NCBI GenBank assembly: GCA_902765005.1
Contig: CACWYB010000027.1
Coordinates: 1 to 32,136 of the forward strand
From: an uncultured Eubacteriales bacterium
Lineage (GTDB): Bacteria > Bacillota > Clostridia > Christensenellales > CAG-138
Direction of reading: 5' to 3'
DNA: 32,136 nt
This document shows, in pieces, positions 10,225 through 28,053 of the stretch (its first letter is position 1; every line of letters starts with the position of its first letter). The notes under the pieces are model-generated. The model was not told where the DNA came from. It ran no database searches and saw only the letters and a program-made list of their open reading frames with translations. A program made the position numbers and the translations under genes.

Positions 10225-10367
10225 GCTTTTTCTTTTCAGTGAAAAGAAAAAGCCCCAAAAAGAAAAGCGCAGGATGAGATTTCGGTATCCCTTCGCATGC
10301 GTTTATCCCCTTGGCTTCTCTTTTTTCGGTCCCTTTTTTACTCTTCTCCTGAAGAGAAAAAAGGGAC
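10225..10367 (+). repeat. Three-hairpin intergenic element, copy A
   Basis: Hairpin 1 is perfect: 13 bp (10225-10237 with 10241-10253), loop AGT, stem made of GCTTTTTCTTTTC. It is followed by CCCAAAAAGAAAAGC, which matches copy B. The middle hairpin is degenerate (GGAT...ATCC). Hairpin 3 spans 10329-10367: GTCCCTTTTTT with AAAAAAGGGAC, then CTCTTC with GAAGAG around a TCCT loop. It lies directly downstream of the MATE gene and upstream of a separate terminator. Confidence 0.75.
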
Positions 10368-10372
10368 AAAAC

Positions 10373-10401
10373 AAAAAGCCCCAAGATCACATCTTGGGGC
10401 T
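10373..10401 (-). terminator. Terminator of metal-transport operon
   Basis: An 11-bp perfect stem, AGCCCCAAGAT (10377-10387) with ATCTTGGGGCT (10391-10401), loop CAC, and five T following on the minus strand (10377-10373). Confidence 0.85.
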
Positions 10402-10417
10402 CGTTCTATTCTTGCTC

Positions 10418-10858
10418 TCAGTGGGCCTTGCGCATGGTGGCGTCCACGAACTGACAGCGGGTAAGGCCGTCCTGGGTGTAGGTCTCCAAGGTGCCCTCCA
10501 CGATGACCTCCGTGCCCACGGCGGGGAGGCTGGCCCCCTCCGGGTCCTTCAGCACGAACTCCACCACGGCGGCGCAGCAGCCCGCCTGGTCCGGCATCTC
10601 CAGGGCGATGCGGTCCGTGGTGTAGGTGCCGTTCTTGTCCCCGTCGGGATAGGGACGGAAATACCCCACCAGCCGGGCGGTCTTGCCCACATACTTATCC
10701 GGGGTCTGGGTCACCTGGGTGATCTCGGCATAGCGCATGTTGGGGTTCATCCGGCTCAGATCCAGGTCCACGTCGGAGGCGCCGCCCCCGCCGCAGCCCA
10801 GGAGGGGAAGCAGGATCATCAGGGCCGAAAGGGCCAGCAGCAACAGCTTTTTACGCAT
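10418..10858 (-). CDS. Lipoprotein associated with metal ABC transporter
   Basis: A 146-aa protein with a signal peptide and lipobox (LLPLLGC, Cys at about 22) followed by a GGGGAS linker, so it should be lipid-anchored outside the membrane. The mature part (ITQVTQTPDKYVGKTARLVG, then a Cys pair GCCAAVVEF, then VGTEVIVEGTLETY) has the strand order of an OB-fold. It overlaps the end of the permease gene by 8 bases and is the last gene of the operon. Context suggests a role in metal uptake or sensing, but no family function is known to me. A CC pair and a later Cys could bind metal; this is speculative. Confidence 0.75.
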   Translation of the reverse strand: MRKKLLLLALSALMILLPLLGCGGGGASDVDLDLSRMNPNMRYAEITQVTQTPDKYVGKTARLVGYFRPYPDGDKNGTYTTDRIALEMPDQAGCCAAVVEFVLKDPEGASLPAVGTEVIVEGTLETYTQDGLTRCQFVDATMRKAH

Positions 10859-11699
10859 GGGAAATGCCTCCTTTTATTCTGCCGATCAGGGTGAAGATAC
10901 CAAAGGCCAGCGCGTCCACCGCCACGATGGTGGAGCCCACGGGGGTGCCTCCCAGGATGGAGATGAGCATGCCCGCCAGGGCGCAGGCCACGGACAGGAC
11001 GGCGGAGCAGATGGTGACGGACAGGAAGGTTTTATGGACCCGCATGGCCGACAGGGCCGGGAAGATGACCAGGGCCGAGATGAGCAATGACCCCACCAGG
11101 TTCATAGCCAGGACGATGATCACCGCGATGATGACCGCGATGATCAGGTTGTAGAGCCGGGCGTTGGTGCCCGTGGCCTGGGCGAAGGTCTCGTCGAAGG
11201 TCACGGCGAAGATCTTGTGGTAGAACAGGAGGAAGGCCGCCACCACCAGCACCGAGAGGACGATGCTCAAAACCACCTCCCGGACCGTCAGGGTCAGGAT
11301 GGAGGTGGAGCCGAAGAGGGTGCTGCACACGTCCCCGGACAGGTTCGAGGAAGTGGAGAAGATGTTCATGAGCAGGTAGCCAAAGGCCAGGGCCCCCACG
11401 GACACCATGGCGATGGCTGCGTCCCCCTTGACGGCGGCCCGCTGGCCCGCGCTCAGCAGCAGCACCGCGCTCAGGACGGTGATGGGCAGCACCAGCAGCA
11501 TCTCGTTGCTTATTCCCAGCACCGTGGCGATGGTCATGGCGCCGAAGGCCACGTGGGAAAGCCCGTCGCCGATGAAGGAGAAGCGCTTGAGCACCAGCGT
11601 CACCCCCAGCAGGGAGGAACACAGGGCGATGAGCACGCCCACGATGAGGGCGTAGCGAACGAAGGGATACTGCAGATACTGCAGCAGGGTCTGGATCAT
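10851..11699 (-). CDS. Metal ABC transporter permease (ZnuB-like)
   Basis: A 282-aa integral membrane protein of the ABC-3 family, with about eight helices. Typical segments are VTLVLKRFSFIGDGLSHVAF near the N-terminus and NLVGSLLISALVIFPALSAM near residue 210. It forms the membrane channel for Zn2+ or Mn2+ uptake together with the adjacent ATPase and binding protein. The ATG at 11699 overlaps the stop of the ATPase gene by 4 bases, which indicates coupled translation. The metal cannot be decided from this subunit. Confidence 0.92.
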   Translation of the reverse strand: MIQTLLQYLQYPFVRYALIVGVLIALCSSLLGVTLVLKRFSFIGDGLSHVAFGAMTIATVLGISNEMLLVLPITVLSAVLLLSAGQRAAVKGDAAIAMVSVGALAFGYLLMNIFSTSSNLSGDVCSTLFGSTSILTLTVREVVLSIVLSVLVVAAFLLFYHKIFAVTFDETFAQATGTNARLYNLIIAVIIAVIIVLAMNLVGSLLISALVIFPALSAMRVHKTFLSVTICSAVLSVACALAGMLISILGGTPVGSTIVAVDALAFGIFTLIGRIKGGISHA

Positions 11700-12400
11700 A
11701 GCTCCACCTCCCTTTGGGTGAACCGCCGGCCCACGGCGCTGTCTAAATACTCTTCTCTGGTGCCGAAGAAGGCCCGCGCCCCCATGTGGAGGATGTGGGT
11801 GGCGTAGGGCAGGGCGGCGGCGATGTCATGGGAGATCATGATGAGGGTGACCCCCTCCCTGTGCAGGCTCTTCAAAACAGCGTACATCTCCGCCGTGGCC
11901 TGGGGGTCAAGGCCCGAGACCGGCTCATCCAGCAGCAAAATCTTCCCCGTGGCGCAGAGGGCCCGGGCCAAAAGGACCCGCTGCTGCTGGCCCCCGGACA
12001 GCTCCCGATAGCACCGATCCTGAAGGGGCAGGACGCCCATGCGCTCCATGTTGCGCCGGGCCAGGGCTTTCTCCTCCGCAGTATAGAACGGGCGCAGACC
12101 GCAACGGCCCTGGCAGCCGGAGAGGACGATCTCCCGGACCGAGGCGGGGAAATCCCGCTGGACGGGGGTCTGCTGGGGCAGGTAGCCGATGTGGCTGCTC
12201 TTGAGCCCCTCCCCGAAGAGGATCTGCCCGGCCATGGGGGGCTGGAGCCCCAGCATGGTCCGCATAAGGGTGGATTTGCCGGAGCCGTTTTCCCCCACGA
12301 TGCACAGATAGTCGCCCTCGTGGACGGAAAAGCTCACATGCTCCGCCAGGATGCGGTTGTCGTACCCCAGCGTCAGGTCCTGAATGGTGAGTAAAGCCAT
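11696..12400 (-). CDS. Metal ABC transporter ATPase (ZnuC-like)
   Basis: A 234-aa cytoplasmic nucleotide-binding subunit. Walker A is GENGSGKST (about 37-45), the Q-loop is YLPQQTPVQRDFPASV, the signature is LSGGQQQR, Walker B is KILLLDEPVSGLD, and the H-loop is MISHD. A CQGRCGLRPF stretch sits where related ZnuC proteins carry a variable loop. It powers the permease encoded next to it. It begins 4 bases after the binding-protein stop and overlaps the permease start, so the three genes are one operon. Confidence 0.93.
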   Translation of the reverse strand: MALLTIQDLTLGYDNRILAEHVSFSVHEGDYLCIVGENGSGKSTLMRTMLGLQPPMAGQILFGEGLKSSHIGYLPQQTPVQRDFPASVREIVLSGCQGRCGLRPFYTAEEKALARRNMERMGVLPLQDRCYRELSGGQQQRVLLARALCATGKILLLDEPVSGLDPQATAEMYAVLKSLHREGVTLIMISHDIAAALPYATHILHMGARAFFGTREEYLDSAVGRRFTQREVEL

Positions 12401-12404
12401 GTCC

Positions 12405-13367
12405 TTATCCTTTCCCGGTCAGCGCCGCTTGGAGCACCGAGAGATTCTCCTCCATGATGGCCAGGTAGTCGGCCCCGTTCTGCACATCCTTTGCGGTGAC
12501 GGACTGGAGGGAGTTCAGCGTCAGGATGGTTTGATCCTTGGTTTGGGTGGTGTTGACGATGGTCTGGGCGATGCGCCCGTCCCCGCCCTCGATCATCAGG
12601 ACGGCGGGGAGCCGCAGCTCGTCCACCTTCCCCGCCAAAAAGGCCACGGTCTCGAAGCTGGCCTCCGTTTCCGCGGAGCAGCCCGAGAAAGCGGCGTAGT
12701 AGGCGAGGCCGTAATCATCCGTCAGATACCGGAAAGGGAACCGGTCCCCGAAGAGCAGGGTGCGCACCGATGCCTGGGCCACGGTTTGCTCATAGCGGGC
12801 GTCCAGGGCGTTCAGCTTCTGCACATAGGCGGCCGCATTGGCGGCATATTGGGAGGCGCCGGCCGGGTCCAGTTCCGACAGGGCCTGGGCGATCCGGTCC
12901 ACCAGGCAGGCGGCGTTTTTCAGGGACAGCCAGATATGCTCGTCCAAAGCTTCGTCCTCCGGCTCCCCTTCCATGCCCTCCGCCAGCTCCTCCGCCTTGG
13001 CCGCGTCGCCCAGTTCAGAAAGGAGGTTCAGCGCCAGCATGTTCTCGTTCTGGGCCTCCTGCAGGGCGTCCGCCACCCAGGAATCGGACTCGCCCCCCAC
13101 GTAGAGGAACACATCGCAGGCGGTAATCTGCAGGATGTCCCGGGCCGTGGGCTGGAAGCTGTGCAGATCCACCCCGGTGTCCAGCAGCATGGTGATCCGG
13201 GCGTCCTCCTCCCCCACCACGTGTTTCACCCAGTCGTAAAGGGGAAAGATGGTGGTGACGATGTGAAGGCCGCCGGCCTGCCGGGGCGTATCTTCCTTCG
13301 GCTCGCCGCAGGCACAAAGACCCAGCAGCAGCGAAAAGGCTAACAGGATACAAACCGTTTTTCTCAT
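12405..13367 (-). CDS. Metal ABC transporter substrate-binding lipoprotein (ZnuA-like)
   Basis: A 320-aa cluster A-I solute-binding protein. The signal peptide ends in a lipobox (LLLGLCAC), so it is lipid-anchored. Metal ligands expected for the family are H in VDLHSFQP and H in DEHIWLS, preceded by an acidic loop EGMEGEPEDEALD that may collect Zn2+. Where ZnuA has its third His, this protein reads FGDRFPFRYL, a variant known in clostridial members; the last ligand may be the E of MIEGGDG. This makes Zn2+ likely but Mn2+ possible. The start MRKTVCILL at 13367 is chosen by the signal peptide; no clear Shine-Dalgarno is seen there. It follows the nuclease-like gene by 31 bases without a terminator. 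Confidence 0.88.
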   Translation of the reverse strand: MRKTVCILLAFSLLLGLCACGEPKEDTPRQAGGLHIVTTIFPLYDWVKHVVGEEDARITMLLDTGVDLHSFQPTARDILQITACDVFLYVGGESDSWVADALQEAQNENMLALNLLSELGDAAKAEELAEGMEGEPEDEALDEHIWLSLKNAACLVDRIAQALSELDPAGASQYAANAAAYVQKLNALDARYEQTVAQASVRTLLFGDRFPFRYLTDDYGLAYYAAFSGCSAETEASFETVAFLAGKVDELRLPAVLMIEGGDGRIAQTIVNTTQTKDQTILTLNSLQSVTAKDVQNGADYLAIMEENLSVLQAALTGKG

Positions 13368-13398
13368 GCTTTGAGCATACAGAGAGGCGGGCGGTTTG

Positions 13399-14160
13399 TC
13401 AATGGCAACCGTCGTCTTTTGGGCGGGAAAGGGAATAAACATAGGCGCTGCCCCGGCGGTCCACCCGGCGGATGGCGTCCATACAGCAGAGCACGTTGGC
13501 GGCGGCGCTCCGGCTGGCCTTGGCAATCCCCATGGCCCGGCCCAGCTCCTGGGCGGTGAAGGTCTCGGGGAGCCCGGCGGGGATGAGGGCGGCGTAGTCC
13601 CCCCTGGTCTTCAGGGGGAGGGCCCCCAGGAACCGGGTGGGGGCGAATTCCAGCTTTCGGACGGCGCGGCGGCCCGCCCCCGCGATCAGGCGTACCTCCT
13701 CCCCTTCCAGCCGCACCAGCAGCAGGGAGAAGTTGGGGTCAGGCAAAAAGGCCTTCAGGTACACCAGCTCCGAAAGGAAGCTCTCCGGCCGCTCCCGCTT
13801 GGGGCTCTTGCGCTTCTGCAGCAGCTCTCCGGTTTGGGCGTCCATGTTCAGGAGCCATTTGGTTTCGATGATGGGGACGACCACGGTGACGGGATAGTAG
13901 GGCAGCAGGGCGGACAGCTTTTCCTTGAGCCGGTGGACGCTGCGGGTCTGGACCTCGAAGACGCCCTGCTCGTTGAGCACGTCCGCAGTGTACCGGCCCA
14001 GCTTCACCTCGTGGCGGGCCATGTCCGGCTCGATCATCCGCTTGAGCACCGCGTGGAGGGTCTTCTCCCCCAGGGTACCCACGCCCTGATCCGCCCGGCC
14101 CGTTTCCTGCACCGCCCGGCAGGCGGCGGCGAAGCTCATCTCATCCAAATGCCATTCCAT
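13399..14160 (-). CDS. Unnamed protein, PD-(D/E)XK-like plus winged helix
   Basis: A 253-aa conserved protein with no established function that I recognise. The N-terminal half has GEKTLHAVLK (E32), then HEVKLGRYTADVLNEQGVFE with D60 and E69-V-Q71. This E...D...ExQ spacing on predicted helix-strand-strand resembles PD-(D/E)XK nuclease folds. The middle holds VTVVVPIIETKWLL and a basic KRKSPKRERP stretch. The C-terminal ~60 residues (FTAQELGRAMGIAKASRSAA...YVYSL) read as a winged helix. A DNA- or RNA-processing role is an inference. It heads the metal-transport operon but probably has its own job. No Shine-Dalgarno precedes the ATG, and a -10 box lies only 6 bases upstream. Confidence 0.75.
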   Translation of the reverse strand: MEWHLDEMSFAAACRAVQETGRADQGVGTLGEKTLHAVLKRMIEPDMARHEVKLGRYTADVLNEQGVFEVQTRSVHRLKEKLSALLPYYPVTVVVPIIETKWLLNMDAQTGELLQKRKSPKRERPESFLSELVYLKAFLPDPNFSLLLVRLEGEEVRLIAGAGRRAVRKLEFAPTRFLGALPLKTRGDYAALIPAGLPETFTAQELGRAMGIAKASRSAAANVLCCMDAIRRVDRRGSAYVYSLSRPKDDGCH

Positions 14161-14166
14161 AGGGCC

Positions 14167-14195
14167 AGTATACCGTATTATTCCACGGGAGTAAA
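14167..14195 (-). promoter_or_regulatory. Promoter with -10 adjacent to ATG
   Basis: TTTACT (14195-14190), 17 bases, TATACT (14172-14167), then six bases (GGCCCT) and the ATG at 14160. Transcription would begin at or very near the start codon. It is the same geometry as the hflX promoter at 20260-20288. Confidence 0.55.
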
Positions 14196-14196
14196 G

Positions 14197-14230
14197 AAAA
14201 AGCAGCGGCGCGAGAGCCTCGCGCCGCTGC
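14197..14230 (-). terminator. gdhA terminator
   Basis: A 13-bp perfect stem, GCAGCGGCGCGAG (14202-14214) with 14218-14230, loop of three, followed on the minus strand by TTTTTC. It lies 30 bases after the original gdhA stop. Confidence 0.88.
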
Positions 14231-14260
14231 GGGTAGGATTAAGGTTCGTTCAGGCGATCA

Positions 14261-15575
14261 TCAGACGATGCCCTGAGCCATCATGGCGTCGGCCACCTTC
14301 AGGAAGCCAGCGATGTTGGCGCCGGCCACCAGGTTGTAGCCAAGGCCGCACTTCTCGGCCGCTTCCACGGAGGCGGCGTAGATGTTGTCCATGATGTTGT
14401 GGAGCTGAGAATCCACTTCCTCGGCCTTCCAGCTGAGGCGCTCGGAGTTCTGGCTCATCTCGAGGCCGCTGACGGACCACGGTGAGGCCCTTGTCCATGA
14501 GGAAGTACAGGGCTTCGTTGGTGGTGGGCATGTTGGCGACTTCGATGTAGTACTTGATGCCGTTGTCCACCATCTGCTGGGCTTCCTTCATGCCGATCTC
14601 GTTCTGATAGGCGCAGGGCATGCAGATGTCGACCTTGCGGCCCCAGGGCTTCTGCTTGGGGAAGAACTCCACGCCAAACTTGTCGGCGTAGTCCTGGACC
14701 CGGTTCCGGTTGGAGGAACGCATCTCCAGCAGGTAGTTGATCTTCTCCTCGGTGACCACGCCGTCGGGATCATAGATGAAGCCGTCGGGGCCGGACAGGG
14801 TGACGACCTTGGCGCCCAGCTGAGCGGCCTTCTTGCAGACGCCCCAGGCCACGTTGCCGAAGCCGGAGACCGCGATGGTCTTGCCTTCCATGGTCTCGCC
14901 GTCATGCTTCAAAACGTTCTCGGCATAGTAGATGGCGCCGAAGCCGGTGGCCTCAGGACGGATCAGGGAGCCGCCGTAGGAACGGCCCTTGCCGGTGAGC
15001 ACGCCGTTCTCATAGGCGTTGCGGATGCGCTTGTACTGGCCGAACAGGAAGCCGATCTCCCGGCCGCCCACACCGATGTCGCCGGCGGGCACGTCCAGGT
15101 TGGGACCGATGTGGCGATAGAGCTCGGTCATGAAGCTCTGGCAGAACCGCATGATCTCCGCATCGGACTTGCCGGTGGGATCGAAATCGGAACCGCCCTT
15201 GCCGCCGCCCATGGGCAGGCTGGTCAGGCTGTTTTTGAAGGTCTGCTCAAAGCCCAGGAACTTCATGACAGACTGGTTCACGTGGGAAGCGAAACGGAGG
15301 CCGCCCTTGTAGGGACCGATGGCGCTGTTGAACTGTACGCGGAAACCGCGGTTTACCTTGACTTCGCCGGCATCATTGACCCAGGGAACCCGGAACTGAA
15401 TGATCCTCTCGGGCTCAACCAGCCGCTCCAGCAAGCCGGCCTTCTCGTACTCGGGGTGCTGCTCAACGACCTTCTCCAGGGAACGGAGAACCTCTTCCAC
15501 GGTCTGAATGAATTCCTTCTGATCCGGATCGCGGCGCTTTACATCCTCAATAACTCTCTCGATGTATGCGTTCAT
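14261..15575 (-). pseudogene. gdhA: NADP-type glutamate dehydrogenase, broken by ~32-nt deletion
   Basis: Hexameric-type glutamate dehydrogenase (glutamate from 2-oxoglutarate and ammonium). Conserved parts are GPYKGGLRF (K90), PMGGGKGG (K126), DVPAGDIGVGGREIG (D166) and the nucleotide loop SGFGNVAWG. After V367 the usual PSKAxNAGGVxxS stretch is missing: the codons run GTG GTC C and then GTCAGCGGCCTCGAG. This fits a loss of 32 nt near 14474, which shifts the frame. The original frame resumes with MSQNSERLSWKAEEVDSQLH and ends ...MAQGIV at 14261; restored, the protein would be 448 aa, the normal length. As read, translation continues out of frame to 14250. The missing segment lines the substrate site, so the product should be inactive if the deletion is real. 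The start at 15575 has GGAGG 5 bases upstream. Confidence 0.88.
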
Positions 15576-15642
15576 AGTGACCTCCATTATGAAATTTGTT
15601 GCCTCCGCCTGCACCGCATACTGCAGGTTTCATTGCATCTCT

Positions 15643-15670
15643 ATCATATCACAACAGAAAAAGATGTCAA
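15643..15670 (-). promoter_or_regulatory. gdhA promoter
   Basis: TTGACA (15670-15665), 16 bases, TATGAT (15648-15643) on the minus strand, about 70 bases upstream of the gdhA start. Confidence 0.7.
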
Positions 15671-15694
15671 CCCGAAAAGACGGCAGGAACAGCC

Positions 15695-15731
15695 AAAAAG
15701 CACCGGGAGACCTGTTGCTGGTCCCCCGGCG
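15695..15731 (-). terminator. Terminator of pyrR-uraA operon
   Basis: A 12-bp stem with one or two mismatches (15720-15731 with 15701-15712) around an AGCAACA-like loop, followed by five T on the minus strand (15699-15695). Confidence 0.8.
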
Positions 15732-15756
15732 AAAGATAATATATTTTATCGGCAGC

Positions 15757-17148: not shown

Positions 17149-17195
17149 TGTTTGTACTCCCTTTCTTATTTACCTATATCTTATCCGCCATGATC

Positions 17196-17738
17196 TCAGC
17201 GGATAGCGAACAGCTTGACGCCCATGGGCTCCCCGTCCACCTCGGGTACGGTGACGAAGATCATCTCGTCCCGGGAGGTGGGGATGTTTTTGCCCACGAA
17301 ATCCGGGCGGATGGGCAGCTCCCGATGGCCCCGGTCGATGAGCACGCACAGCTGGATGGACGCCGGCCGGCCGAAAGCGAAGATGCCCTCCATGGCGGCC
17401 CGGGCGGTGCGGCCGGTGAAGATCACGTCGTCCACCAGTATCACATCCTTCCCCGCCACCTCCACGGGGAAATGGGAGTCCCCGGCGTCGGGCAGGGAGC
17501 TGATCTCGGAGAGATCGTCCCGGTAGAGGGTGATGTCCATGTAGCCCACGGGGGCGGACGCGCCATCGAACTTCTCCATGTTGGCGGCGATGGCCTCGGC
17601 CAGAGGCAGGCCCCGGCGCTTGATGCCCACCAGCAAAACGTTTTGGGTGCCCCGGTTCCGCTCGATGATCTCATGGGTCAGCCGGGCCAAAGACCGCTGG
17701 ACCGCGGCCTCATCCATGATCTGGGCTTTGAACTTCAT
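17196..17738 (-). CDS. pyrR: PyrR regulator/uracil phosphoribosyltransferase
   Basis: A 180-aa bifunctional protein: an RNA-binding attenuator of pyrimidine genes that also converts uracil and PRPP to UMP. The PRPP-binding motif is DVILVDDVIFTGRTARAA (about 98-115), preceded by LVGIKRRGLPLAEAIA. The N-terminus MKFKAQIMDEAAVQRSLARL and the C-terminal DEMIFVTVPEVDGEPMGVKL agree with the family, as does the length. The start at 17738 is supported by AAAGGA 6 bases upstream; the longer frame to 17852 only translates the RNA leader. It is first in the pyrR-uraA operon and is expected to control its own leader. Confidence 0.95.
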   Translation of the reverse strand: MKFKAQIMDEAAVQRSLARLTHEIIERNRGTQNVLLVGIKRRGLPLAEAIAANMEKFDGASAPVGYMDITLYRDDLSEISSLPDAGDSHFPVEVAGKDVILVDDVIFTGRTARAAMEGIFAFGRPASIQLCVLIDRGHRELPIRPDFVGKNIPTSRDEMIFVTVPEVDGEPMGVKLFAIR

Positions 17739-17767
17739 GGGACATCCTTTCCGCGGGACGGGCCATG

Positions 17768-19408: not shown

Positions 19409-19423
19409 GGACTGTTTACCTGC

Positions 19424-19550
19424 GACTTTTTCTTTTCAGTGAAAAGAAAAAGTCACCCAAAAAGAAAAGCTCAGGAAGACTGATATGGCAGTATTCCTGA
19501 GTTTTTTGTATTCCCGAAGTTCTATTTGACCTTTTTTTCGAGAAAAGGGC
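19424..19550 (+). repeat. Three-hairpin intergenic element, copy B
   Basis: Hairpin 1 is perfect: 14 bp (19424-19437 with 19441-19454), loop AGT. Then comes CCCAAAAAGAAAAGC. Hairpin 2: CTCAGGAA (19470-19477) with TTCCTGAG (19494-19501), inner pair ACTG/CAGT, followed by six T, so it can act as terminator for xpt. Hairpin 3 is weak (CCTTTT...AAAAGG, 19530-19548). This copy sets the reference orientation. Confidence 0.78.
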
Positions 19551-19595
19551 AAAAATGCCACCCCTTCGGCATAGGGTGTGTCGGAGGGGTTTGGT

Positions 19596-20294: not shown

Positions 20295-22029
20295 ATGGAA
20301 CAGAAGATAAACGGAAACATCAGCGGCATCCGCGACGTGCTGCTGGAGGAAATGAAGACCCTCTACGACATGGACCAGCCCGCGGGCACCTTCGCTTCCC
20401 GGGAGCTGCTGGAGGCTTTGTGCGCCTTCACGTATAGGATCAACCGGGAGATCAGCGTGTACATCTCCCGGGCGGGCCTTATCAAGGACGTGTCCGTCGG
20501 CGACGATCGGACCGTGTCCATGCCCGAAATGCGCCTGGTCCGGAACATCGACCGGCTCAACGGCGTCCGCTGCATCCACACCCACCCCAACGGAAGCGGC
20601 TACCTTTCCGACGTGGATTTGGGCACCCTCAATGCCATGCGCCTGGACGCCATGTGCGCTCTACGCCGCCTTTGTGGGCGAGGTGGTGGACGAGGAGCGG
20701 CGCCCCCTGATCTACGGCCCCCTGCGGTGGGACCGGCTCCCCCAGCGGGGGCTGCTGGACGCCATCATGGAGGCCGACCAGCGGCTGAAGGCCCCCGCCG
20801 TGGACGTGGCCGGGTCAAAGCCCGAGCGGGCCATTTTGGTGGGTATCGAGAACAACGAGGGCTACGACACTCTAAGTGAGTTAGAGGAGCTGGCCAAGAC
20901 CGCCGGCGTGGAGGTCATCCGCCGGGAGAGCCAGAAGAAGCGCTCCATCGACAGCGCCACCTACATCGGCTCCGGCAAGGCGGACGAGCTGCGGCTTTTA
21001 GCCAGCGCCACGGAGGCGGATTTGTTCATCTTCGACGACGAGCTCTCCGCCATCCAGATCCGCAACCTGGAGGACATCCTCTGCACCCCGGTCATCGACC
21101 GGACCATGCTGATCCTGGATATCTTCGCCACCCGGGCCACCAGCCGGGAGGGCCGCTTGCAGGTGGAGCTGGCCCAGCTCCAATACCGGCTCCCCAGGCT
21201 TCTCGGCACGGGCCTGGCCCTCTCCCGACAGGGCGCGGGCGTGGGCATGCGGGGCCCCGGTGAAAAGAAGCTGGAGATCGACCGCCGCCGCATCCGCCGC
21301 CGGATTTACGAACTGAAGGAGGAGCTCAAGGAGGTGGAGGGCCAGCGCTCGTTGCGCCGCACCGCCCGGAAGAAGACCGGCGTGCCTCTTATCGCTTTGG
21401 TAGGTTACACCAACGCGGGCAAGAGCACCCTGCTGAACGCCCTCACCAACGCTGCCGTCCTGGCGGAGGACAAGCTCTTTGCCACCCTGGACCCGGTGGT
21501 CCGGCAGATCACCCTGCCCCAGGGCACGGCCTGCATCCTCTCCGACACGGTGGGCTTTATCAACAAGCTCCCCACGGATCTCATCGAGGCCTTCCGCTCC
21601 ACCTTGGAGGAGGTGCGGGACGCGGACTTGATCCTTCACGTGGTGGACAGCAGCTGCCCCCACTACGAGGTCCAGATGCAGGTGGTGGACGAGGTTTTGA
21701 ACTCCCTGGGCGCGGGCAGCACCCCCCGCATCGACGTGTACAACAAGGTGGACAAGGAGGGAGCCCTGCCCGCCCATCGGGGCACCTTCGTTCATATCAG
21801 CGCGCTCACGGGCCAGGGGCTGGACGAGCTTCTGACGAAAGCCGAGGAGATCCTCAATCAGGGCCAGCGGCTCATGGAGCTGTTCATCCCCTACGACAAA
21901 TACGAGGCCATGCAGGCCCTGCGCGCCGCGGGCAGCATCCTGGAGGAATCCTATGAGGACACCGGCACCCGTGTGAAGGTGATGATCGGCGAGGACAAGC
22001 TCTGGAAGGTCAAGCGGTGCTTGGAGTGA
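20295..22029 (+). pseudogene. hflX: GTPase HflX with JAMM-like N-terminal domain, frameshifted
   Basis: HflX binds the 50S subunit and splits or rescues ribosomes with GTP. The GTPase part shows G1 [10 protein letters not shown]3 DTVGF and G4 NKVD, after the HflX glycine-rich domain ([28 protein letters not shown]). Ahead of it lies an extension of about 175 residues with [15 protein letters not shown]95, H97, S105, D108, the exact HxHx7Sx2D metalloprotease spacing of JAMM proteins, with E52 (NREISV) as a candidate fourth residue. Similar extensions occur in clostridial HflX. The frame from 20295 must shift by +1 near 20652-20660 to continue into [20 protein letters not shown]; removal of one base restores a 577-aa protein. 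The disruption may be a sequencing error. The gene is coupled to the ATPase gene 4 bases downstream. Confidence 0.88.
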
Positions 22030-22033
22030 GGCT

Positions 22034-22753
22034 ATGAACGATCTGTTCATCCGCGCGGCCTGCCTGGACTGGGCGGGCATCGAAAAGGACAGCTACCTGT
22101 GGACCATCCCCGCCATTGCCGGGGTGGACCGGGTGGAGTTTGACAGGCCCGTCACCTGCTTCGTGGGGGAGAACGGCAGCGGCAAATCCACCCTGCTGGA
22201 GGCCATGGCCGTGAGCGCCGGCTTCAACCCCGAGGGCGGCACGAAGAACTATGCCTTTTCCACGTTCGATTCCCATTCCGAGCTGTGCGGGAGCATGCGC
22301 CTGGTCAAGGGCGTGAAAAAGCCCCGCTGGGGGTACTTCCTTCGGGCGGAAAGCTTCTACAATGTGGCCACGGCGGAGAATGAGTACAGCCGGGGCCCCG
22401 GCGGCGTGCCCCAGCACCTCCATGAGAAATCCCACGGGGAGAGCTTCTTAGCCACGGCGCAGAACAACTTTCGGCCCGGCGGGCTCTACTTTTTGGATGA
22501 GCCCGAGGCCGCCCTGTCCCCCCAGCGGCAGCTGACCTTGCTTCGGGAGATTTACACCTGCGCCCGGGCCGGGGCTCAGTTCTTTATGGTCACCCACTCG
22601 CCCATCCTGCTGGGCCTGCCGGATGCGGCCATCCTTTCCTTCGACGAAGGGCCCCTCCATCCCATCGCCTACGAGGACACGGACAGCTTTCAGATCACCA
22701 GCCTGTTTCTCTCCGACCGCAAGCGGCTTTTGCGGGACCTGCTGGAACCGTAG
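22034..22753 (+). CDS. AAA/ABC-type ATPase of unknown function
   Basis: A 239-aa cytoplasmic ATPase. Walker A is GENGSGKST (about 44-52). The signature-like stretch EKSHGESFLATAQN (about 130-143) stands in the place of LSGGQ, Walker B is LYFLDEPEAALSP, and the H-loop is MVTHSP. This is the pattern of stand-alone SMC/OLD-like ATPases rather than transporter subunits, and there is no nuclease domain. The start follows the hflX stop by 4 bases, with GGAG in the end of hflX serving as ribosome site, so the two are probably made together. A role linked to ribosome rescue or DNA damage is possible only by context. Confidence 0.82.
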   Translation: MNDLFIRAACLDWAGIEKDSYLWTIPAIAGVDRVEFDRPVTCFVGENGSGKSTLLEAMAVSAGFNPEGGTKNYAFSTFDSHSELCGSMRLVKGVKKPRWGYFLRAESFYNVATAENEYSRGPGGVPQHLHEKSHGESFLATAQNNFRPGGLYFLDEPEAALSPQRQLTLLREIYTCARAGAQFFMVTHSPILLGLPDAAILSFDEGPLHPIAYEDTDSFQITSLFLSDRKRLLRDLLEP

Positions 22754-22787
22754 GCCCAAAGTTCCCATTCCTGCCACAATTTCCCCA

Positions 22788-22815
22788 TTGACATCCGCAC
22801 ACATAGGGCTATAAT
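22788..22815 (+). promoter_or_regulatory. MarR-ABC operon promoter
   Basis: TTGACA (22788-22793), 16 bases, TATAAT (22810-22815). The palindromic operator begins inside the -10 box. Confidence 0.8.
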
Positions 22816-22840
22816 AGTTAACTGACTAACAGTTAACTAT
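22814..22840. promoter_or_regulatory. Palindromic MarR operator
   Basis: ATAGTTAACTG (22814-22824) and CAGTTAACTAT (22830-22840) form a perfect 11-bp inverted repeat around ACTAA. Each arm also contains the palindrome AGTTAACT. It covers the end of the -10 box and the transcription start, so a bound regulator would block its own operon. Confidence 0.85.
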
Positions 22841-22867
22841 TTAATTTTATGCAAAAGGAGGGAATCC

Positions 22868-23353
22868 ATGCAGACGGAGAAATTGGCCAGGCGGATGGCC
22901 TTCGTGTCCGCCCTGCGGCGGGCCGCCCTGAACCGGGAGCGGGAGCAGCTGGGGCAGAAGCTTATCCCCGTGCCCCTCATGGCCTATGTGCTGGAGCATC
23001 CCGGCTGTACCCAGGGGGAGGTGGCCCAATGGCTCTATATCTCCCCGGCCTCCGTGGCCACCAGCTGCAAGCGCCTGGAGAAGGAGGGCCTGCTGGAGCG
23101 GCGGGTGGACCCGGTGAACCGGCGGAAAAACCAGCTCTATGTGACGGAGGAGGGCCGGGCCCTCACCTACGAGAAATGGGCCATGCTCAACCGGGTGAAC
23201 GAACGGACCTTTGCCGGCATCGGGGAAGGGGAGCTGGCCATCTTCTCCCGGGTCCTGGACAGGATGATCGATAATTTGGGCGGCCGGGACGTGGAACCCA
23301 ACCAGGTCTTCGCCTCCCTGATGGAAGCGGAAAAGCGAAAGGAAAAGAAATGA
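22868..23353 (+). CDS. MarR family regulator of ABC exporter
   Basis: A 161-aa winged-helix dimeric repressor. The HTH is TQGEVAQWLYISPASVATSC (about 49-68), followed by the wing KEGLLERRVDPVNRRKNQLY, and flanking helices form the dimer interface. AAAGGAGGG lies about 6 bases upstream of the ATG. The ATGA overlap with the first exporter gene and the palindromic operator over the promoter indicate autoregulation, with release by a ligand, probably an exporter substrate. The C-terminal tail is Lys/Glu-rich (EAEKRKEKK). Confidence 0.92.
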   Translation: MQTEKLARRMAFVSALRRAALNREREQLGQKLIPVPLMAYVLEHPGCTQGEVAQWLYISPASVATSCKRLEKEGLLERRVDPVNRRKNQLYVTEEGRALTYEKWAMLNRVNERTFAGIGEGELAIFSRVLDRMIDNLGGRDVEPNQVFASLMEAEKRKEKK

Positions 23354-25086
23354 AGAACACCGTAAAGCGACTTTTGGGCTACGTGGGCAAGTATAAGTAC
23401 CCGGCCATCCTTACCATCCTGTGCATGATCGGCGAGGTGGTCTTCGAGGTGCTCATTCCCCGGTACATGGCCCTGCTCATCGACAACGGCATCAGCCTGG
23501 GGGACACGGGGTACGTATACCGTATGGGCGGCGTCATGATCCTGCTCACCCTGGGGGCCATGCTCCTGGGCATGCTGGGGGTCATCTTCGGCGCCCGGTC
23601 CTCCACGGGCTTCGCCATGAACCTGCAGAACGCGGTCTTCGGCGCGGTGGAGGACTTCTCCTTCAAGAACACGGATAAGTTCACCACCCCGTCCCTCATC
23701 ACCCGCATGACCAACGACATCACCAACATCCAGCAGGCCTTTCAGATGACCATCCGCATGGCCATGCGCTCCCCGGCTCAGCTTATATTGGCCACCTTCA
23801 TGGCCATCCGCATCTCCGGCCGGCTTTCCCTGGTGCTGCTGGCGGCCCTGCCGGTGCTGGCCGGTTTTTTGATCCTCATCGGCACCAAGGCCCATCCCCG
23901 GTTCATCGCCATGCTCCACCGGTACGACGACATGAACGCCTCCGCCCAGGAGAATCTGATCGCCATCCGGGTGGTGAAGGCCTTCGTCCGGGGAGACTAT
24001 GAGACAAAGAAGTTCAAGAAGTGCGCCGCGGACGTGCGGGACGCCCAGCTGCGGGCGGAAAAGCTGCTGATCCTCAGCGGCCCCCTCATGACCCTGACCA
24101 TGTACGCCTGCATCCTGGCGGTGGTGGGCATCGGCAGCAGCCATATCGCCACGGGCCAGATGCTCTCCGGCGAGCTCATCAGCTTCATCTCCTACATCAG
24201 CTCCATCCTCATCTCCCTCATGATGCTCAGCATGTACTTCATGATGCTCATCATGTCCTCCGCCTCCGCCAAGCGTCTGGTGGAGGTGCTGGACGAGGTC
24301 CCCGCCATCGACGAGAACCGGTCCTCCACCCTGGAGGTGAAGGACGGCTCCGTGGACTTTGACCATGTGGACTTCTCCTACTCCGGCAGCGACGAGAACC
24401 CCACCCTGACGGACATCGACCTGCACATCCAAAGCGGCGAGGTCATCGGCGTTATCGGCGGCTCCGGCAGCGGCAAAACCAGCCTGGTCCAGCTGATCCC
24501 CCGGCTCTATGAGGTGAACGCCGGGACCGTGAAGGTGGGCGGCGTGAACGTGAAGGACTATTCCACCGACACCCTCCGGGGCGCCATCGGCATGGTGCTG
24601 CAGAAGAACGTGCTCTTCTCCGGCACCATCAAAGAGAACCTGAAGTGGGGCGATCCCAACGCCACCGATGACGAGATCGAAGCCGCCTGCAAGGCCGCCT
24701 GTGCCCACGATTTCATCCAATCCTTCCCCCAGGGTTACGACACGAACCTGGGCCAGGGGGGCGTGAACGTGTCCGGCGGGCAGAAGCAGCGGCTGTGCAT
24801 CGCCCGGGCCCTGCTCAAGAACCCCAAGATCCTCATCCTGGACGACTCCACCAGCGCCGTGGATACCGCCACCGACGCGGCCATCCGGGAGGCCTTCAAA
24901 AACGCCTGCCCCCAGACCACCAAGATCATCATCGCCCAGCGGCTCAACTCCGTTATGGACGCGGACAGGATCGTGGTCCTGGACGAGGGAAAGATCAACG
25001 ACGTGGGCACCCATGAGGAGCTGCTCAAGCGGAATCGGATCTACCAGGAGGTCTATGAATCTCAGACCCAGAAGGAGGCGGCATAA
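23350..25086 (+). CDS. Heterodimeric ABC multidrug exporter, degenerate-site subunit
   Basis: A 578-aa half transporter: six-helix membrane domain (about 1-310) and nucleotide-binding domain. Walker A is GGSGSGKT (370-377) and the signature is NVSGGQKQR, both canonical. Walker B ends in LDDSTSAVD with D499 where the catalytic Glu should be, and the H-loop reads IIIAQRL with Q530 in place of His. This is the mark of the degenerate half of heterodimers such as BmrC/BmrD, LmrCD or TM287/288. The partner gene at 25195 has the complementary features. Substrates are likely drugs, dyes or peptides, but cannot be named. Coupled to marR by ATGA. Confidence 0.93.
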   Translation: MKNTVKRLLGYVGKYKYPAILTILCMIGEVVFEVLIPRYMALLIDNGISLGDTGYVYRMGGVMILLTLGAMLLGMLGVIFGARSSTGFAMNLQNAVFGAVEDFSFKNTDKFTTPSLITRMTNDITNIQQAFQMTIRMAMRSPAQLILATFMAIRISGRLSLVLLAALPVLAGFLILIGTKAHPRFIAMLHRYDDMNASAQENLIAIRVVKAFVRGDYETKKFKKCAADVRDAQLRAEKLLILSGPLMTLTMYACILAVVGIGSSHIATGQMLSGELISFISYISSILISLMMLSMYFMMLIMSSASAKRLVEVLDEVPAIDENRSSTLEVKDGSVDFDHVDFSYSGSDENPTLTDIDLHIQSGEVIGVIGGSGSGKTSLVQLIPRLYEVNAGTVKVGGVNVKDYSTDTLRGAIGMVLQKNVLFSGTIKENLKWGDPNATDDEIEAACKAACAHDFIQSFPQGYDTNLGQGGVNVSGGQKQRLCIARALLKNPKILILDDSTSAVDTATDAAIREAFKNACPQTTKIIIAQRLNSVMDADRIVVLDEGKINDVGTHEELLKRNRIYQEVYESQTQKEAA

Positions 25087-25193
25087 TGAAAAAACAAGTT
25101 TTCCATTATGCGCAGTTTGTGACTTTGCCGCGGACCGGCGCGGCAATTTCGCAGGCGAAACCGTCAAAACGGCCAACAGGGAAGGAGGATTGA
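25086..25193 (+). CDS. Small ORF of 35 codons between exporter genes
   Basis: The ATG overlaps the stop of the upstream exporter gene (TAATG), and AAGGAGG (25072-25078) lies 7 bases before it, an ideal ribosome site. The product would be a 35-aa basic peptide starting MKKQVFHYAQFVTLPRTGAA and rich in Lys, Arg and Pro, with no membrane segment or Cys. The stop is one base before the start of the next exporter gene, and the ribosome site of that gene (AAGGAGG at about 25182-25188) lies within it. It may be a real small protein, or a coupling ORF that hands ribosomes to the second subunit. No family is recognised. Confidence 0.5.
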   Translation: MKKQVFHYAQFVTLPRTGAAISQAKPSKRPTGKED

Positions 25194-25194
25194 A

Positions 25195-27009
25195 ATGGCT
25201 AAAGGATTTGCAAAGCCCCAAAACGTGGGCAAAACCTTCTCCCGCCTGTTCAGCTACCTCAAGCCCCACGCGGGCAAGCTCATTCTGGCGGCCCTGCTCC
25301 TGCTGGTGAGCAGCCTGGGCGGCGTGGTGGGCACGTATCTGTTGAAGCCCATCTTCAACATCGCCGCGGACATGTTCCAAACCGGCAGCCGGGATTTCGG
25401 CCCCATCCTTAGGAACATTTTTCTGCTGGCCGCGGTGTACGTGGCCGGCGTGGGGGCCAACTACGGCCTGAACCGCCTGCTCCTCAAGGTGAACACCAGC
25501 GTGCTCTATGAGATCCGCTGCCAGATGTATGAGAAGCTGGAGAAGCTTCCCCTGCAGTACTTCGACAGCCGGACCCATGGCGAGATCATGTCCCGGTTCA
25601 CCAACGACACCGACACCCTCCGGGAGATGCTCAGCAACGCCCTCCCCAACATGATCAGCAGCTCCGTCACCCTCATCGGCGTGCTGGTGGCCATGCTGCT
25701 CATGAACTGGAAGCTCACCCTCCTGGTCCTGGGCATCCTGTTCCTCATGACCCTCTTCGTAGGCCGGCTCACCCGGCTCAGCGCCAAGTATTTCCGGGCG
25801 CGTCAAGCCGCCATCGCCGCCGCCAGCGGCTATGTGGAGGAGCACTTCGAGGGCCAGCGGGAGGTGAAGGTGTTCTGCCATGAGGGAAAGGTCAAAACCG
25901 AGTTCGGCGCCCTGGCGGAGAACCTCAGGAACGCCGCCGCCAAGGCCAACTCCTACGGCATGATCCTCATGCCCATCATGGGCAACGCCAGCTATATCCT
26001 CTTCGCCGTGTCCGCCATGTCCGGCACCGCCCTCATCATCCGGGGGCTCATGGACATCGGCACCCTGGCCGCCTACCTGCAGTACAGCAAGCAGATCGCC
26101 CGGCCCATCAACATGATCTCCCAACAGGTCACCAGCGTGCTCAACGCCATGGCCGGCGCCGAGCGGATCTTCGACCTCATGGACACCGCCCCCGAGGTGG
26201 ATGAGGGCCGGTACACCCTGGAGAAGGTGGGCAAGGATCAGTGGGCCTGGGTTCGGGGGGAGGAGCGGGTGCCCCTTAGGGGCGACGTGCGCTTCGACCA
26301 CGTGACCTTCTCCTACGACGGGAAGGTGGACGTGCTCAAGGACCTGAGCCTCTACGCCAAGCCCGGCCAGAAGATCGCCTTCGTGGGCTCCACCGGCGCA
26401 GGGAAGACCACCATCACCAACCTGATCAACCGGTTCTACGACGTGCAGACCGGGGCCATCACCTACGACGGCATCAACGTGAAGGACATCAAAAAGGACG
26501 ACCTGCGGCGCTCTCTGGGCATGGTGCTCCAGGACACCCACCTGTTCACCGGCACGGTCATGGAGAACATCCGCTACGGCCGATTGGACGCCACGGACGA
26601 GGAGTGCATCGCCGCCGCCAAGCGGAGCAACGCTCACTTCTTCATCTCCCACCTGCCCGAGGGGTATGACACCGTGCTCACCGCCGATGGCGCCAACCTT
26701 TCCCAGGGCCAGCGGCAGCTCATCGCCATCGCCCGGGCCGCCGTGGCGGACCCGCCGGTGCTCATTCTCGACGAGGCCACCAGCTCCATCGACACCCGCA
26801 CCGAGGCTCACATCGAAAAGGGTATGGACGAGCTCATGAAGGGGCGGACCGTGTTCGTCATCGCCCACCGGCTCTCCACCGTCCGCAACGCCAACGCCAT
26901 CATGGTCCTGGAGCACGGCGTCATCATCGAGCGGGGCGACCATCAGGACCTCCTGGCCCAGCAGGGGCGGTATTACCAGCTGTACATGGGCATGTTTGAG
27001 TTGTCTTAA
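25195..27009 (+). CDS. Heterodimeric ABC multidrug exporter, catalytic-site subunit
   Basis: A 604-aa half transporter. The membrane domain (about 15-330) includes PLQYFDSRTHGEIMSRFTND, the coupling-helix region typical of exporters. The NBD has Walker A GSTGAGKTT (about 398-406), Walker B VLILDEATSSID with the catalytic E527, and a normal H-loop FVIAHRLSTV. The signature is changed to LSQGQ (around S503-Q506). Together with the first subunit this gives one working site (Walker A/B and His from here, LSGGQ from the partner) and one degenerate site. A linker of about 20 residues (KVGKDQWAWVRGEERVPL) precedes the NBD. AAGGAGG precedes the ATG by about 6 bases. Confidence 0.93.
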   Translation: MAKGFAKPQNVGKTFSRLFSYLKPHAGKLILAALLLLVSSLGGVVGTYLLKPIFNIAADMFQTGSRDFGPILRNIFLLAAVYVAGVGANYGLNRLLLKVNTSVLYEIRCQMYEKLEKLPLQYFDSRTHGEIMSRFTNDTDTLREMLSNALPNMISSSVTLIGVLVAMLLMNWKLTLLVLGILFLMTLFVGRLTRLSAKYFRARQAAIAAASGYVEEHFEGQREVKVFCHEGKVKTEFGALAENLRNAAAKANSYGMILMPIMGNASYILFAVSAMSGTALIIRGLMDIGTLAAYLQYSKQIARPINMISQQVTSVLNAMAGAERIFDLMDTAPEVDEGRYTLEKVGKDQWAWVRGEERVPLRGDVRFDHVTFSYDGKVDVLKDLSLYAKPGQKIAFVGSTGAGKTTITNLINRFYDVQTGAITYDGINVKDIKKDDLRRSLGMVLQDTHLFTGTVMENIRYGRLDATDEECIAAAKRSNAHFFISHLPEGYDTVLTADGANLSQGQRQLIAIARAAVADPPVLILDEATSSIDTRTEAHIEKGMDELMKGRTVFVIAHRLSTVRNANAIMVLEHGVIIERGDHQDLLAQQGRYYQLYMGMFELS

Positions 27010-27030
27010 TCGGAATCATTTATATTTCGA

Positions 27031-27165
27031 TCCTTTTTCTTGAAAGAAAAAGGACCAAAAAGAACTTTAGGCATACAAAAAAGCTTAGGAATTCTACTTT
27101 GTTAGTCTTCCTGAGCTTTTCTTTTTGCGCCGCTTTTTCTTTTTCTCCTGAAAAGAAAAAGCGGC
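27031..27165 (-). repeat. Three-hairpin intergenic element, copy C (inverted)
   Basis: Inverted relative to copy B. On the plus strand: 10-bp hairpin (27031-27040 with 27045-27054, loop TGAA); middle hairpin AGCTTAGGAA (27082-27091) with TTCCTGAGCT (27108-27117), inner CTA/TAG, followed by TTTTCTTTTT; and a 15-bp hairpin (27129-27143 with 27151-27165). Reverse-complemented, the central ~75 bases match copy B nearly base for base. It follows the exporter operon and could terminate it. Confidence 0.8.
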
Positions 27166-27202
27166 AGATAAGCAATTTATAAAATTGATTTGCAAAATAT
27201 AG

Positions 27203-27231
27203 TTGACAAATCCGAAAATGCAATATATACT
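27203..27231 (+). promoter_or_regulatory. Promoter of HTH-DUF6773 pair
   Basis: Consensus TTGACA (27203-27208), 17 bases, TATACT (27226-27231). Start codon 24 bases downstream. No clear operator palindrome was seen. Confidence 0.85.
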
Positions 27232-27255
27232 GTACATCGTCAGGAGGGAAACGTC

Positions 27256-27474
27256 ATGAGAAACCTGAAGCTGAAATTCAAGCGCATCGAGCGCGGCATG
27301 TCGCAGACGGAGCTGGCGCAAAAGGCTGGCGTGACCCGGCAGACCATCGGGCTAATCGAGGCGGGGGAGTTCAACCCCTCCATCAAGCTGTGCGTGGCCA
27401 TCTGTCGGGCCCTGGGCGTCACATTGAACGATATCTTTTGGGAGGAGGAAGAAAATGAAACAGTGGAAAAATAA
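27256..27474 (+). CDS. Small Cro/CI-type HTH regulator
   Basis: A 72-aa DNA-binding protein of the YozG/Xre type. The HTH is SQTELAQKAGVTRQTIGLIE (about 16-35), followed by AGEFNPSIKLCVAICRALGV and the LNDIFWEEEE end. Such regulators are usually paired with a small membrane protein and control that gene pair. AGGAGG (27242-27247) lies 8 bases before the ATG at 27256; an in-frame start at 27190 would precede the promoter and was rejected. The 3' end overlaps the next gene by 20 bases. Confidence 0.9.
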   Translation: MRNLKLKFKRIERGMSQTELAQKAGVTRQTIGLIEAGEFNPSIKLCVAICRALGVTLNDIFWEEEENETVEK

Positions 27475-27916
27475 TCTGGACGAGCGGCAGGAGCAGGCTC
27501 TGGAAAAAATCGAAGGCAAAGGGTGCTGGCTGGCCTTCTGGGGACTGCTGATCGCCCTTCTGGTGCAGCTGGTGGTGTTTCGAACGGACTTCAAGCCGAT
27601 GATCGGCGAAGCGGCGGTATTTCTGATCCTTTCGGGCTATCTTGCGGTGGGATGCCTGCGGCAGGGGATCTGGGACAGGCGCCTACAGCCCAATCTCAAA
27701 ACGAACCTGCTCGTCTCCCTGGTGGTGGCCCTGATCGTTGGGGCGGTGAACTTCGTGGTGATTCTCATCCGATTCCCCGGCGTGACTGCCCGCGGGGCGA
27801 TAACGGCCCTCATCTGCATGGGGATAACCTTCCTTTTCTGCTTCGGGGTCCTTTCCCTGTTTGCCCGTGTCTACAAAAAGAGGTGCCAGGCCTTGGAATC
27901 CGAGCCGGAGGAGTGA
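27455..27916 (+). CDS. DUF6773-type membrane protein
   Basis: A 153-aa protein with four hydrophobic segments: WLAFWGLLIALLVQLVVF, AAVFLILSGYLAVGCL, LLVSLVVALIVGAVNFVVIL and GAITALICMGITFLFCFGVL. The opening NLDERQEQALEKIEGKGCWL is the family mark. Function is unknown; it is found next to a small HTH gene in many Firmicutes, which suggests a membrane sensor or a target of that regulator. GGAGG lies upstream within the HTH gene, and the 20-base overlap implies coupled translation. The C-terminus is charged (KKRCQALESEPEE). Confidence 0.85.
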   Translation: MKQWKNNLDERQEQALEKIEGKGCWLAFWGLLIALLVQLVVFRTDFKPMIGEAAVFLILSGYLAVGCLRQGIWDRRLQPNLKTNLLVSLVVALIVGAVNFVVILIRFPGVTARGAITALICMGITFLFCFGVLSLFARVYKKRCQALESEPEE

Positions 27917-27935
27917 GCGGAAGGATTGATAGCTC

Positions 27936-28053
27936 GCACCCTTTCTTGAAAGAAAGGGTGCAGACCCAAAGAACTTTAGGAATATAAAAAAGCTTAGGAA
28001 TACTACAGCATTAGTCTTCCTGAGCTTTTCTTTTTGCGCCGCTTTTTCTTTTC
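27936..28053 (-). repeat. Three-hairpin intergenic element, copy D (inverted, one end truncated)
   Basis: Same orientation as copy C. An 11-bp hairpin (27936-27946 with 27951-27961, loop TGAA) has a stem sequence different from copy C but fully paired. The middle hairpin is AGCTTAGGAA (27991-28000) with TTCCTGAGCT (28017-28026), inner ACTA/TAGT. The last hairpin keeps only its first arm (GCCGCTTTTTCTTTTC) and then breaks off into CCCAGAGG, so that end is lost. Confidence 0.78.

What the first reader, a model, noticed from the sequence alone, without database searches (positions are those of the whole stretch)
10225..28053. Family of three-hairpin intergenic elements in both orientations
Four intergenic gaps (10225-10367, 19424-19550, 27031-27165, 27936-28053) carry the same architecture: a CTTTTTCTTTTC/GAAAAGAAAAAG hairpin, the string CAAAAAGAAAAGC, a middle hairpin CTCAGGAA...TTCCT(G/A)AG followed by T-rich DNA, and another T/A-rich hairpin. 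A and B are in plus orientation, C and D in minus; C reversed matches B almost base for base across the middle. They have defined ends, contain no ORF and sit directly after stop codons. This is not an ordinary terminator, since whole units of 120-145 bp are conserved. It could be a MITE/REP-like non-autonomous element that settled as a two-way terminator, or an RNA-processing signal. I do not recognise it as a described family.
Basis: seen in the sequence. Interest (0 to 1): 0.8.

Follow-up and report, generated by a model that had tools for sequence, protein, structure and literature searches.

The report
Triplex-armed two-way terminator repeats
A gut bacterium and its relatives carry dozens of copies of a short DNA element that sits just behind gene ends, looks like a two-way stop signal for transcription, and is flanked by hairpins whose letters change together as if a third strand paired with them.

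Summary
In detail: the four gaps carry one repeat family. A covariance model finds 124 sites in the 2.38-Mb assembly and 22-138 matches in each of the 12 genomes of the genus. No Rfam family reaches threshold.

Anatomy: a central hairpin with T-rich tracts on both strands, flanked by two outward-facing modules. Each module is a pyrimidine-purine hairpin followed by a purine tract that mirrors the hairpin's purine arm. The mirror persists while letters change: 94 of 129 unique genus modules are exact, against 31.0 (maximum 45) after permutation, over 15 different cores. This is the geometry of an intrastrand triple helix.

Elements start a median 13 nt after stop codons. Three orthologous gene ends without it show plain hairpins instead. 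At one gene end, elements are 97-100% identical between genomes whose third codon positions are 76-87% identical.

Verdict: bidirectional terminator cassettes armed with PIT/BoxC-like modules; a MITE is not supported. That a triplex forms, and in which molecule, is inferred. Gene order around B-D differs from 7 of 7 relatives; two of three junctions private to the window lie at elements.

The parts
10221..10370 (-). Element A: long-type modules of different class at the two ends, divergent centre; between convergent genes 8760-10211(+) and 10418-10858(-)
10226..10267 (+). A, left module: Y 10226-10237, loop 10238-10240, R 10241-10252, spacer, mirror purine tract L 10257-10267
   Evidence: read directly
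10315..10365 (+). A, right module: third strand T 10315-10326, Y about 10331-10346 (one extra A), loop, R 10351-10365; other class
   Evidence: read directly
19420..19553 (-). Element B, tandem context: Y 19426-19437, R 19441-19452, L 19459-19469, central hairpin about 19470-19501, degenerate distal hairpin; at a gene junction (18746|19578) not seen in the relatives compared
27028..27167 (+). Element C, tandem context: Y 27032-27041, R 27044-27053, L 27057-27064; central hairpin about 27082-27119; T 27116-27126; Y 27133-27143, R 27151-27161
   Evidence: nearly identical at the same gene end in G006 and G005
27934..28072 (+). Element D between convergent genes: Y 27939-27947, R 27950-27958, L 27968-27973; central hairpin; T 28025-28035; Y 28042-28053; right R arm missing; at a gene junction (27916|28155) not seen in the relatives compared

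Best explanation
The element is a bidirectional intrinsic-terminator cassette placed directly behind stop codons. A central hairpin is followed on each strand by a T-rich tract, so that transcription from either side would stop there (inferred from sequence and position). The two flanking modules are hairpins whose purine arm is mirrored by a neighbouring purine tract, so that one strand of each module could fold into a pyrimidine-motif (T.A-T, C+.G-C) intrastrand triple helix. Shown by comparison: the mirror relation is kept across many sequence variants. Inferred: a triple helix forms, most likely on the template DNA strand of the gene whose stop codon it follows, when that strand is exposed behind an RNA polymerase at the terminator; it holds the DNA open or the polymerase paused, which helps termination and insulates the neighbour. 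In the mRNA the same module is a hairpin just behind the stop codon, a plausible barrier to 3' exonucleases. Repeated inverted copies may also serve as recombination sites.
For: Copy number. Position: stop codon to element median 13 nt (n=151, quartiles 9, 13, 18), start-codon side median 76 nt (n=55); of 124 own sites 51 convergent, 49 tandem, 3 divergent, 18 overlapping a called gene, 3 at an edge. In 15 x 20 kb of G006 not chosen for the element: module in 5 of 16 convergent, 5 of 57 tandem, 0 of 20 divergent gaps >=80 bp; 0 of 279 shuffled gaps. Centre terminator-like (dG <= -6, at least 6 T of 9) on both strands in 51 of 124 and on at least one in 92 of 124; mononucleotide shuffles 0 and 15. 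Watson-Crick covariation score 0.211 against 0.109, 0 of 500 shuffles as high. Mirror: own inner modules 144 of 200 exact against 58.6, maximum 71; unique stop-adjacent genus modules with cores >=8 nt 94 of 129 (own 48 of 64, relatives 46 of 65) against 31.0, maximum 45; exact direct repeat 0 of 129; 15 cores. Odd strand among 1368 triplets of 123 modules: R 21, L 17, Y 1, all differ 1: Y, which is the central purine strand on the opposite strand, varies least. Modules next to a stop are intact in 39 of 49 tandem and 83 of 102 convergent cases, distal tandem ones in 27 of 49 (p=0.017). Conservation beyond neighbouring codons at one gene end.
Against: No transcript ends or structure probing here. 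The simple terminator scan did not list the centres of A-D (its loop limit is 8). The + strand of A gave no terminator in my own scan. Short cores taken alone differ less from permutation, 59 of 82 against 42.5 (maximum 49). T.G over C.A mismatches in stems, 24 to 13, is not significant (p=0.10, a few loci of other genera included). PIT elements showed no terminator activity and in vivo footprinting did not support stable triplexes in E. coli (PMC4666352, passages read). Only 5 of 16 convergent gaps in the G006 sample have a module. Arms are short (6-14 nt) and need 1-3 protonated C.
Confidence: 0.6

Rival explanations
1. RNA level: the sense mRNA hairpin just after the stop codon, with or without the purine tract, is what is selected (3'-end stability or processing); a DNA triplex is incidental.
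For: Modules are kept next to a stop codon and decay more elsewhere. 16 of 21 odd changes of the R strand are A to G, which keeps a U.G pair in sense RNA; T.G 24 to C.A 13. By eye, 8 of 10 archaeal pattern hits lie at or inside tRNA genes in the same sense order.
Against: A hairpin alone does not need the mirror tract. In sense RNA the triplex would be of the purine motif, which Holder et al. state cannot form in RNA (PMC4666352), and its central strand R is the most variable.
Confidence: 0.3
2. RNA triple helix (U-rich third strand before the hairpin) in read-through transcripts, shielding the opposite gene from antisense RNA.
For: In each direction the last module read has the pyrimidine third strand first, the order that RNA can form.
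Against: It predicts that in tandem contexts the distal module is kept and the proximal one decays; the reverse is seen, 27 of 49 against 39 of 49.
Confidence: 0.08
3. A MITE/REP-like mobile element that spread and merely sits at gene ends.
For: High copy number, both orientations (66 +, 58 -), whole units conserved, damaged copies.
Against: Y1 transposase in 2 of 12 genomes; no clean empty site at the three element-less orthologous ends seen; variable centres; tight spacing to stop codons; strong conservation at one site. Target-site duplications and other transposases were not tested.
Confidence: 0.12
4. Recombination or instability element; the position behind stop codons is where such sequences are tolerated.
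For: Gene order in the window differs from 7 of 7 relatives with contiguous sequence, and the private junctions 18746|19578 and 27916|28155 hold B and D, which are inverted copies. Holder et al. link triplex motifs to instability (PMC4666352).
Against: One locus; a third private junction, 19578|20295, has no element, so it is not a simple two-breakpoint inversion; elements are strongly conserved at one orthologous site.
Confidence: 0.1

Closest known systems
Intrastrand triplex repeats: PIT elements / BoxC / TM_ECO (Holder et al. 2015, PMC4666352: abstract, text parts 1-5 of 10 and discussion part 1 of 2 read; earlier work of Hoyne and Maher known only through it)
   Same: Hairpin plus third tract on one strand, intergenic, many copies; in E. 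coli K-12 five inverted pairs, always of unlike types; linked to rearrangement.
   Different: A/T-rich instead of G/C-rich; third strand covaries over 15 cores; usually two modules around a terminator-like centre behind stop codons; PIT elements showed no terminator activity and no link to gene orientation.
Bidirectional intrinsic (rho-independent) terminators (general knowledge)
   Same: Hairpin with A-tract before and T-tract after, at gene ends.
   Different: Two extra outward hairpins with mirror tracts, conserved as one unit of roughly 120-170 bp.
REP/BIME and MITE repeats (general knowledge)
   Same: Intergenic palindromic repeats in many copies and both orientations.
   Different: No matching Y1 transposase in most genomes, no clean empty site seen, variable centre.
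H-DNA mirror repeats (described in PMC4666352)
   Same: Homopurine mirror repeat.
   Different: Here one half of the mirror is also an arm of an inverted repeat, so all three strands can come from one strand.

Membership tests
Intrastrand triplex motif (ITxF) | Three tracts of 6-15 nt on one strand with triplet-compatible letters | tested here: met
Intrastrand triplex motif (ITxF) | Loops of 1-6 nt between tracts (a setting of the ITxF search) | tested here: not met
   hairpin loops 3-7 nt in 134 of 134, but the spacer counted from the A-run is 7 nt or more in 87 of 98 exact mirrors, because the stem goes on beyond the core
Intrastrand triplex motif (ITxF) | Folds into a triplex in vitro | not testable with these tools
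   needs CD, NMR or probing
BoxC/TM_ECO | Published G/C-rich consensus | tested here: not met
   by inspection; the consensus was not searched for
BoxC/TM_ECO | Inverted pairs always of unlike types | tested here: met
   0 of 81 pairs alike; pooled permutation mean 21.8; keeping the ends apart mean 3.0, 2.3% as low; long-long pairs 0 of 9 against 2.8, 2.7% as low. The model favours H1-H3 pairs, but of 48 H1-type pattern hits in the genome no two are within 200 bp
Bidirectional intrinsic terminator | Hairpin followed by T-tract on both strands | tested here: met
   51 of 124 on both, 92 of 124 on at least one strand; not in every copy
Bidirectional intrinsic terminator | Located after stop codons | tested here: met
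Bidirectional intrinsic terminator | Stops transcription | not testable with these tools
   no RNA data
REP/RAYT system | Y1 transposase (PF01797) in the genome | tested here: not met
   2 of 12 genomes, not the window's own assembly, which is 77% complete
MITE | Target-site duplications and empty sites | tested here: inconclusive
   no clean empty site at three element-less orthologous ends; duplications not tested
Any Rfam family | Score above gathering threshold | tested here: not met
   0 hits; lowest E-value below threshold: Phe_leader at C, 32.3 of 55 bits, E 0.093

The most novel reading that the evidence does not exclude
Natural triple helices are under direct selection in living bacteria: the third strand coevolves with the hairpin because triplex formation on the template strand behind RNA polymerase is part of how these genes end, a class of triplex-assisted two-way terminators.
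Probability: 0.3. Interest if true: 0.9.

Novelty: new variant of a known kind. Interest (0 to 1): 0.7.

Why it matters
[quoted passage not shown] Here fifteen different cores in one genus keep the third-strand match while their letters change. That is comparative evidence that triplet pairing itself is selected, and the position behind stop codons gives a testable role.

Tried and rejected
Known RNA family: rejected. REP-type transposase: rejected for most genomes. Direct repeat as the reason for the purine tract: exact in 0 of 129 modules, mirror in 94. Strand of RNA action from wobble counts: tried three ways, not significant; the large ratio (90 to 27) comes largely from pairs outside the stem core. 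The share 51 of 57 convergent gaps was rejected as biased, since those stretches were picked around elements; the G006 sample gives 5 of 16. A first gene caller put a wrong gene over the ABC transporters and was replaced. An earlier count, 98 of 134 modules and 17 cores, held 5 such modules and 2 cores from RGIG9149, a MAG I cannot place in the genus; it was recounted without them. A simple inversion between B and D, read, was withdrawn: homologues of gene 19578 lie on other contigs than gene 18746 in the relatives, gene 28155 was found only in G001, and the junction 19578|20295 has no element; for this the odds of the recombination reading were lowered from 0.15 to 0.1. Paper searches listed no paper describing this family; apart from PMC4666352 only listings were seen.
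Full report
Observation. The four gaps read as described. Pattern counts exceed shuffles, and B against C and D are inverted repeats of 66-67 nt. No Rfam family reaches its gathering score. BLAST of the own assembly with C scored 40 of 133 candidates. A covariance model was built from 24 of the 30 loci found so, plus B; six truncated or divergent loci were left out. It gave 149 matches at E<=0.1, many of them both strands of one place, which I reduced by hand to 124 sites; one pair overlaps by 29 bases. In a sequence search of 61 genomes, 13 match: the 12 of the genus and one genome (G036) of another genus. A mirror-module pattern is in 13 of 103 family genomes, with 1 to 73 hits in each of the 12 of the genus and one hit elsewhere; the reversed pattern has none. 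The genus itself has no name in my results.

Anatomy. In the orientation of C: hairpin H1 (Y1-R1), purine tract L, central hairpin, pyrimidine tract T, hairpin H3 (Y3-R3). L is the mirror image of R1's A/G core; T is the mirror image of Y3, so it is parallel-complementary to R3. That is the order of an ITxF class IV motif on one strand and class II on the other. Cores include GAAAAGAAAAA, GAAGAGAAAAAA, AAAGAGAAAAA and AAAGAGAAAAAAA. Many copies shown have an unrelated central hairpin. The two ends of an element are of unlike class in 81 of 81 scored pairs.

Covariation. Own sites, both ends: 200 inner modules, 144 exact against 58.6 (maximum 71) in 500 permutations; long cores 85 of 118 against 31.6 (maximum 47); short cores 59 of 82 against 42.5 (maximum 49). 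Stop-adjacent hairpins: 310 behind 1064 unique stops, 249 unique by my key, 241 after leaving out eight from other genomes (RGIG9149 and G036). Of these the 129 with cores of at least 8 nt give 94 exact mirrors and 0 exact direct repeats; permuted mean 31.0, maximum 45; own 48 of 64, relatives 46 of 65; 15 cores of at least 7 nt. Modules share ancestry, so the number of cores is a better measure than the number of modules. RGIG9149 adds two further cores, of 13 and 14 nt, with exact mirrors, and G036 has an H1-like module. Watson-Crick pairs covary too. In 1368 triplets of 123 modules (6 of the 129 dropped for poor register) the odd strand is R 21 times, L 17, Y once, all different once; 16 of the R changes are A to G. 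If a purine-motif triplex on the sense strand were selected, R, its centre, should vary least; instead Y does, which on the other strand is the centre of a pyrimidine-motif triplex. Some R cases are related copies.

Context. Genes were called with a dicodon caller of my own, so single starts may be wrong. Distances, contexts and the biased and less biased gap counts are; in the window itself the strict detector flags 1 of 2 convergent and 2 of 11 tandem gaps, so it misses one of the four. Integrity: convergent 83 of 102, tandem next to the stop 39 of 49, tandem distal 27 of 49; the 24 other sites were not used. The model needs both ends, so decay of distal modules is probably underestimated. 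In tandem contexts H3 more often faces the upstream gene, 32 against 17, p=0.04. Central hairpins look like terminators in most, not all, copies.

Evolution. After the gene that precedes B, 8 of 9 relatives carry a module of varying class behind the same stop; G008 has a plain hairpin with a weak T-tract. After the gene that precedes A, G006 and G001 have modules, while G004 and G009 have plain hairpins with T-tracts. After the gene that precedes C, G006 and G005 are nearly identical to the window while G001 and G011 have other versions. In two groups of three genomes the 155 nt after one stop codon are 97-100% identical, the adjacent coding part 83-90%, its third positions 76-87%. In 7 of 7 relatives with contiguous sequence, genes 20295-27009 (and 27190-27916 in the four that have them) run opposite to the window relative to gene 18746, and one element separates 18746 from its convergent neighbour. 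The window's private junctions 18746|19578 and 27916|28155 hold B and D; the third, 19578|20295, holds no element, gene 19578 is on other contigs in the relatives, and 28155 was found only in G001. So elements lie at two of three junctions of a complex rearrangement; that they caused it is not shown.

Interpretation. Position, two-strand terminator-like centres and exchange with plain hairpins make a bidirectional terminator the best reading. The mirror tract needs more, and parallel triplet pairing is the only cause I found that fits all cores. The tandem data speak against an RNA triplex in read-through transcripts; the strand constraint speaks against a purine-motif triplex on the sense strand; what is left is a pyrimidine-motif triplex on the template DNA strand, with an RNA hairpin role possible besides. 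None of this is shown by experiment.

Known kinds. Holder et al. 2015 (PMC4666352; parts read as stated) describe intrastrand triplex repeats, their classes, the E. coli BoxC/PIT motif, inverted pairs of unlike type, no terminator activity, and association with instability. The present family shares geometry and the unlike-pair rule but is A/T-rich, terminator-centred and stop-codon-bound, and its spacers exceed the ITxF setting. I therefore call it PIT/BoxC-like, not a member. Search listings 30, 56, 60, 61, 70 and 72 showed no paper describing it; that covers only the open-licence library.

Noticed in passing
L213, L252, L256, L257, L265, L268, L274, L277 (positions): By eye, 8 of 10 archaeal pattern hits (Micrarchaeota, Pacearchaeota, a Euryarchaeota MAG) lie inside tRNA genes like introns (T-loop or near the anticodon) or, in L213, directly after a tRNA-Glu, always in the same sense order. 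ARAGORN called only the tRNA-Glu beside a hit, so the split genes are my reading.
   Followed up: partly
L236, L255, L259, L285, L289, L308: Another Oscillospiraceae MAG (S33_Bin3) has six pattern hits; the five read are near-identical copies of a different repeat with the same mirror module.
   Followed up: no
L224, L251, L288: MAG RGIG9149 carries modules with long, different cores (13-14 nt) and exact mirrors, perhaps an independent family.
   Followed up: no
window 28054-28093: D's right arm is replaced by a sequence (GATTTGTCAAGGGG...) that also replaces an arm at G000:C1:133462; three exact copies in the assembly.
   Followed up: partly
own sites C26:11094, C26:26620, C1:148597, C19:26289, C2:2635: Several copies have one arm replaced by a shared GCAGCGCTCGGCT-like sequence.
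   Followed up: no
window 27203-27231: A near-consensus promoter (TTGACA-17-TATACT) before the HTH gene 27190-27474, right after C, is present in 4 of 4 relatives aligned.
   Followed up: no
window 10376-10402: Beside element A the minus-strand gene also has a plain GC-rich terminator-like hairpin.
   Followed up: no
window 5020-5244 and 7934-8077: In-gene tandem repeats with 15-nt and 9/18-nt periods; the second reads as a collagen-like pattern on the minus strand (my reading).
   Followed up: no
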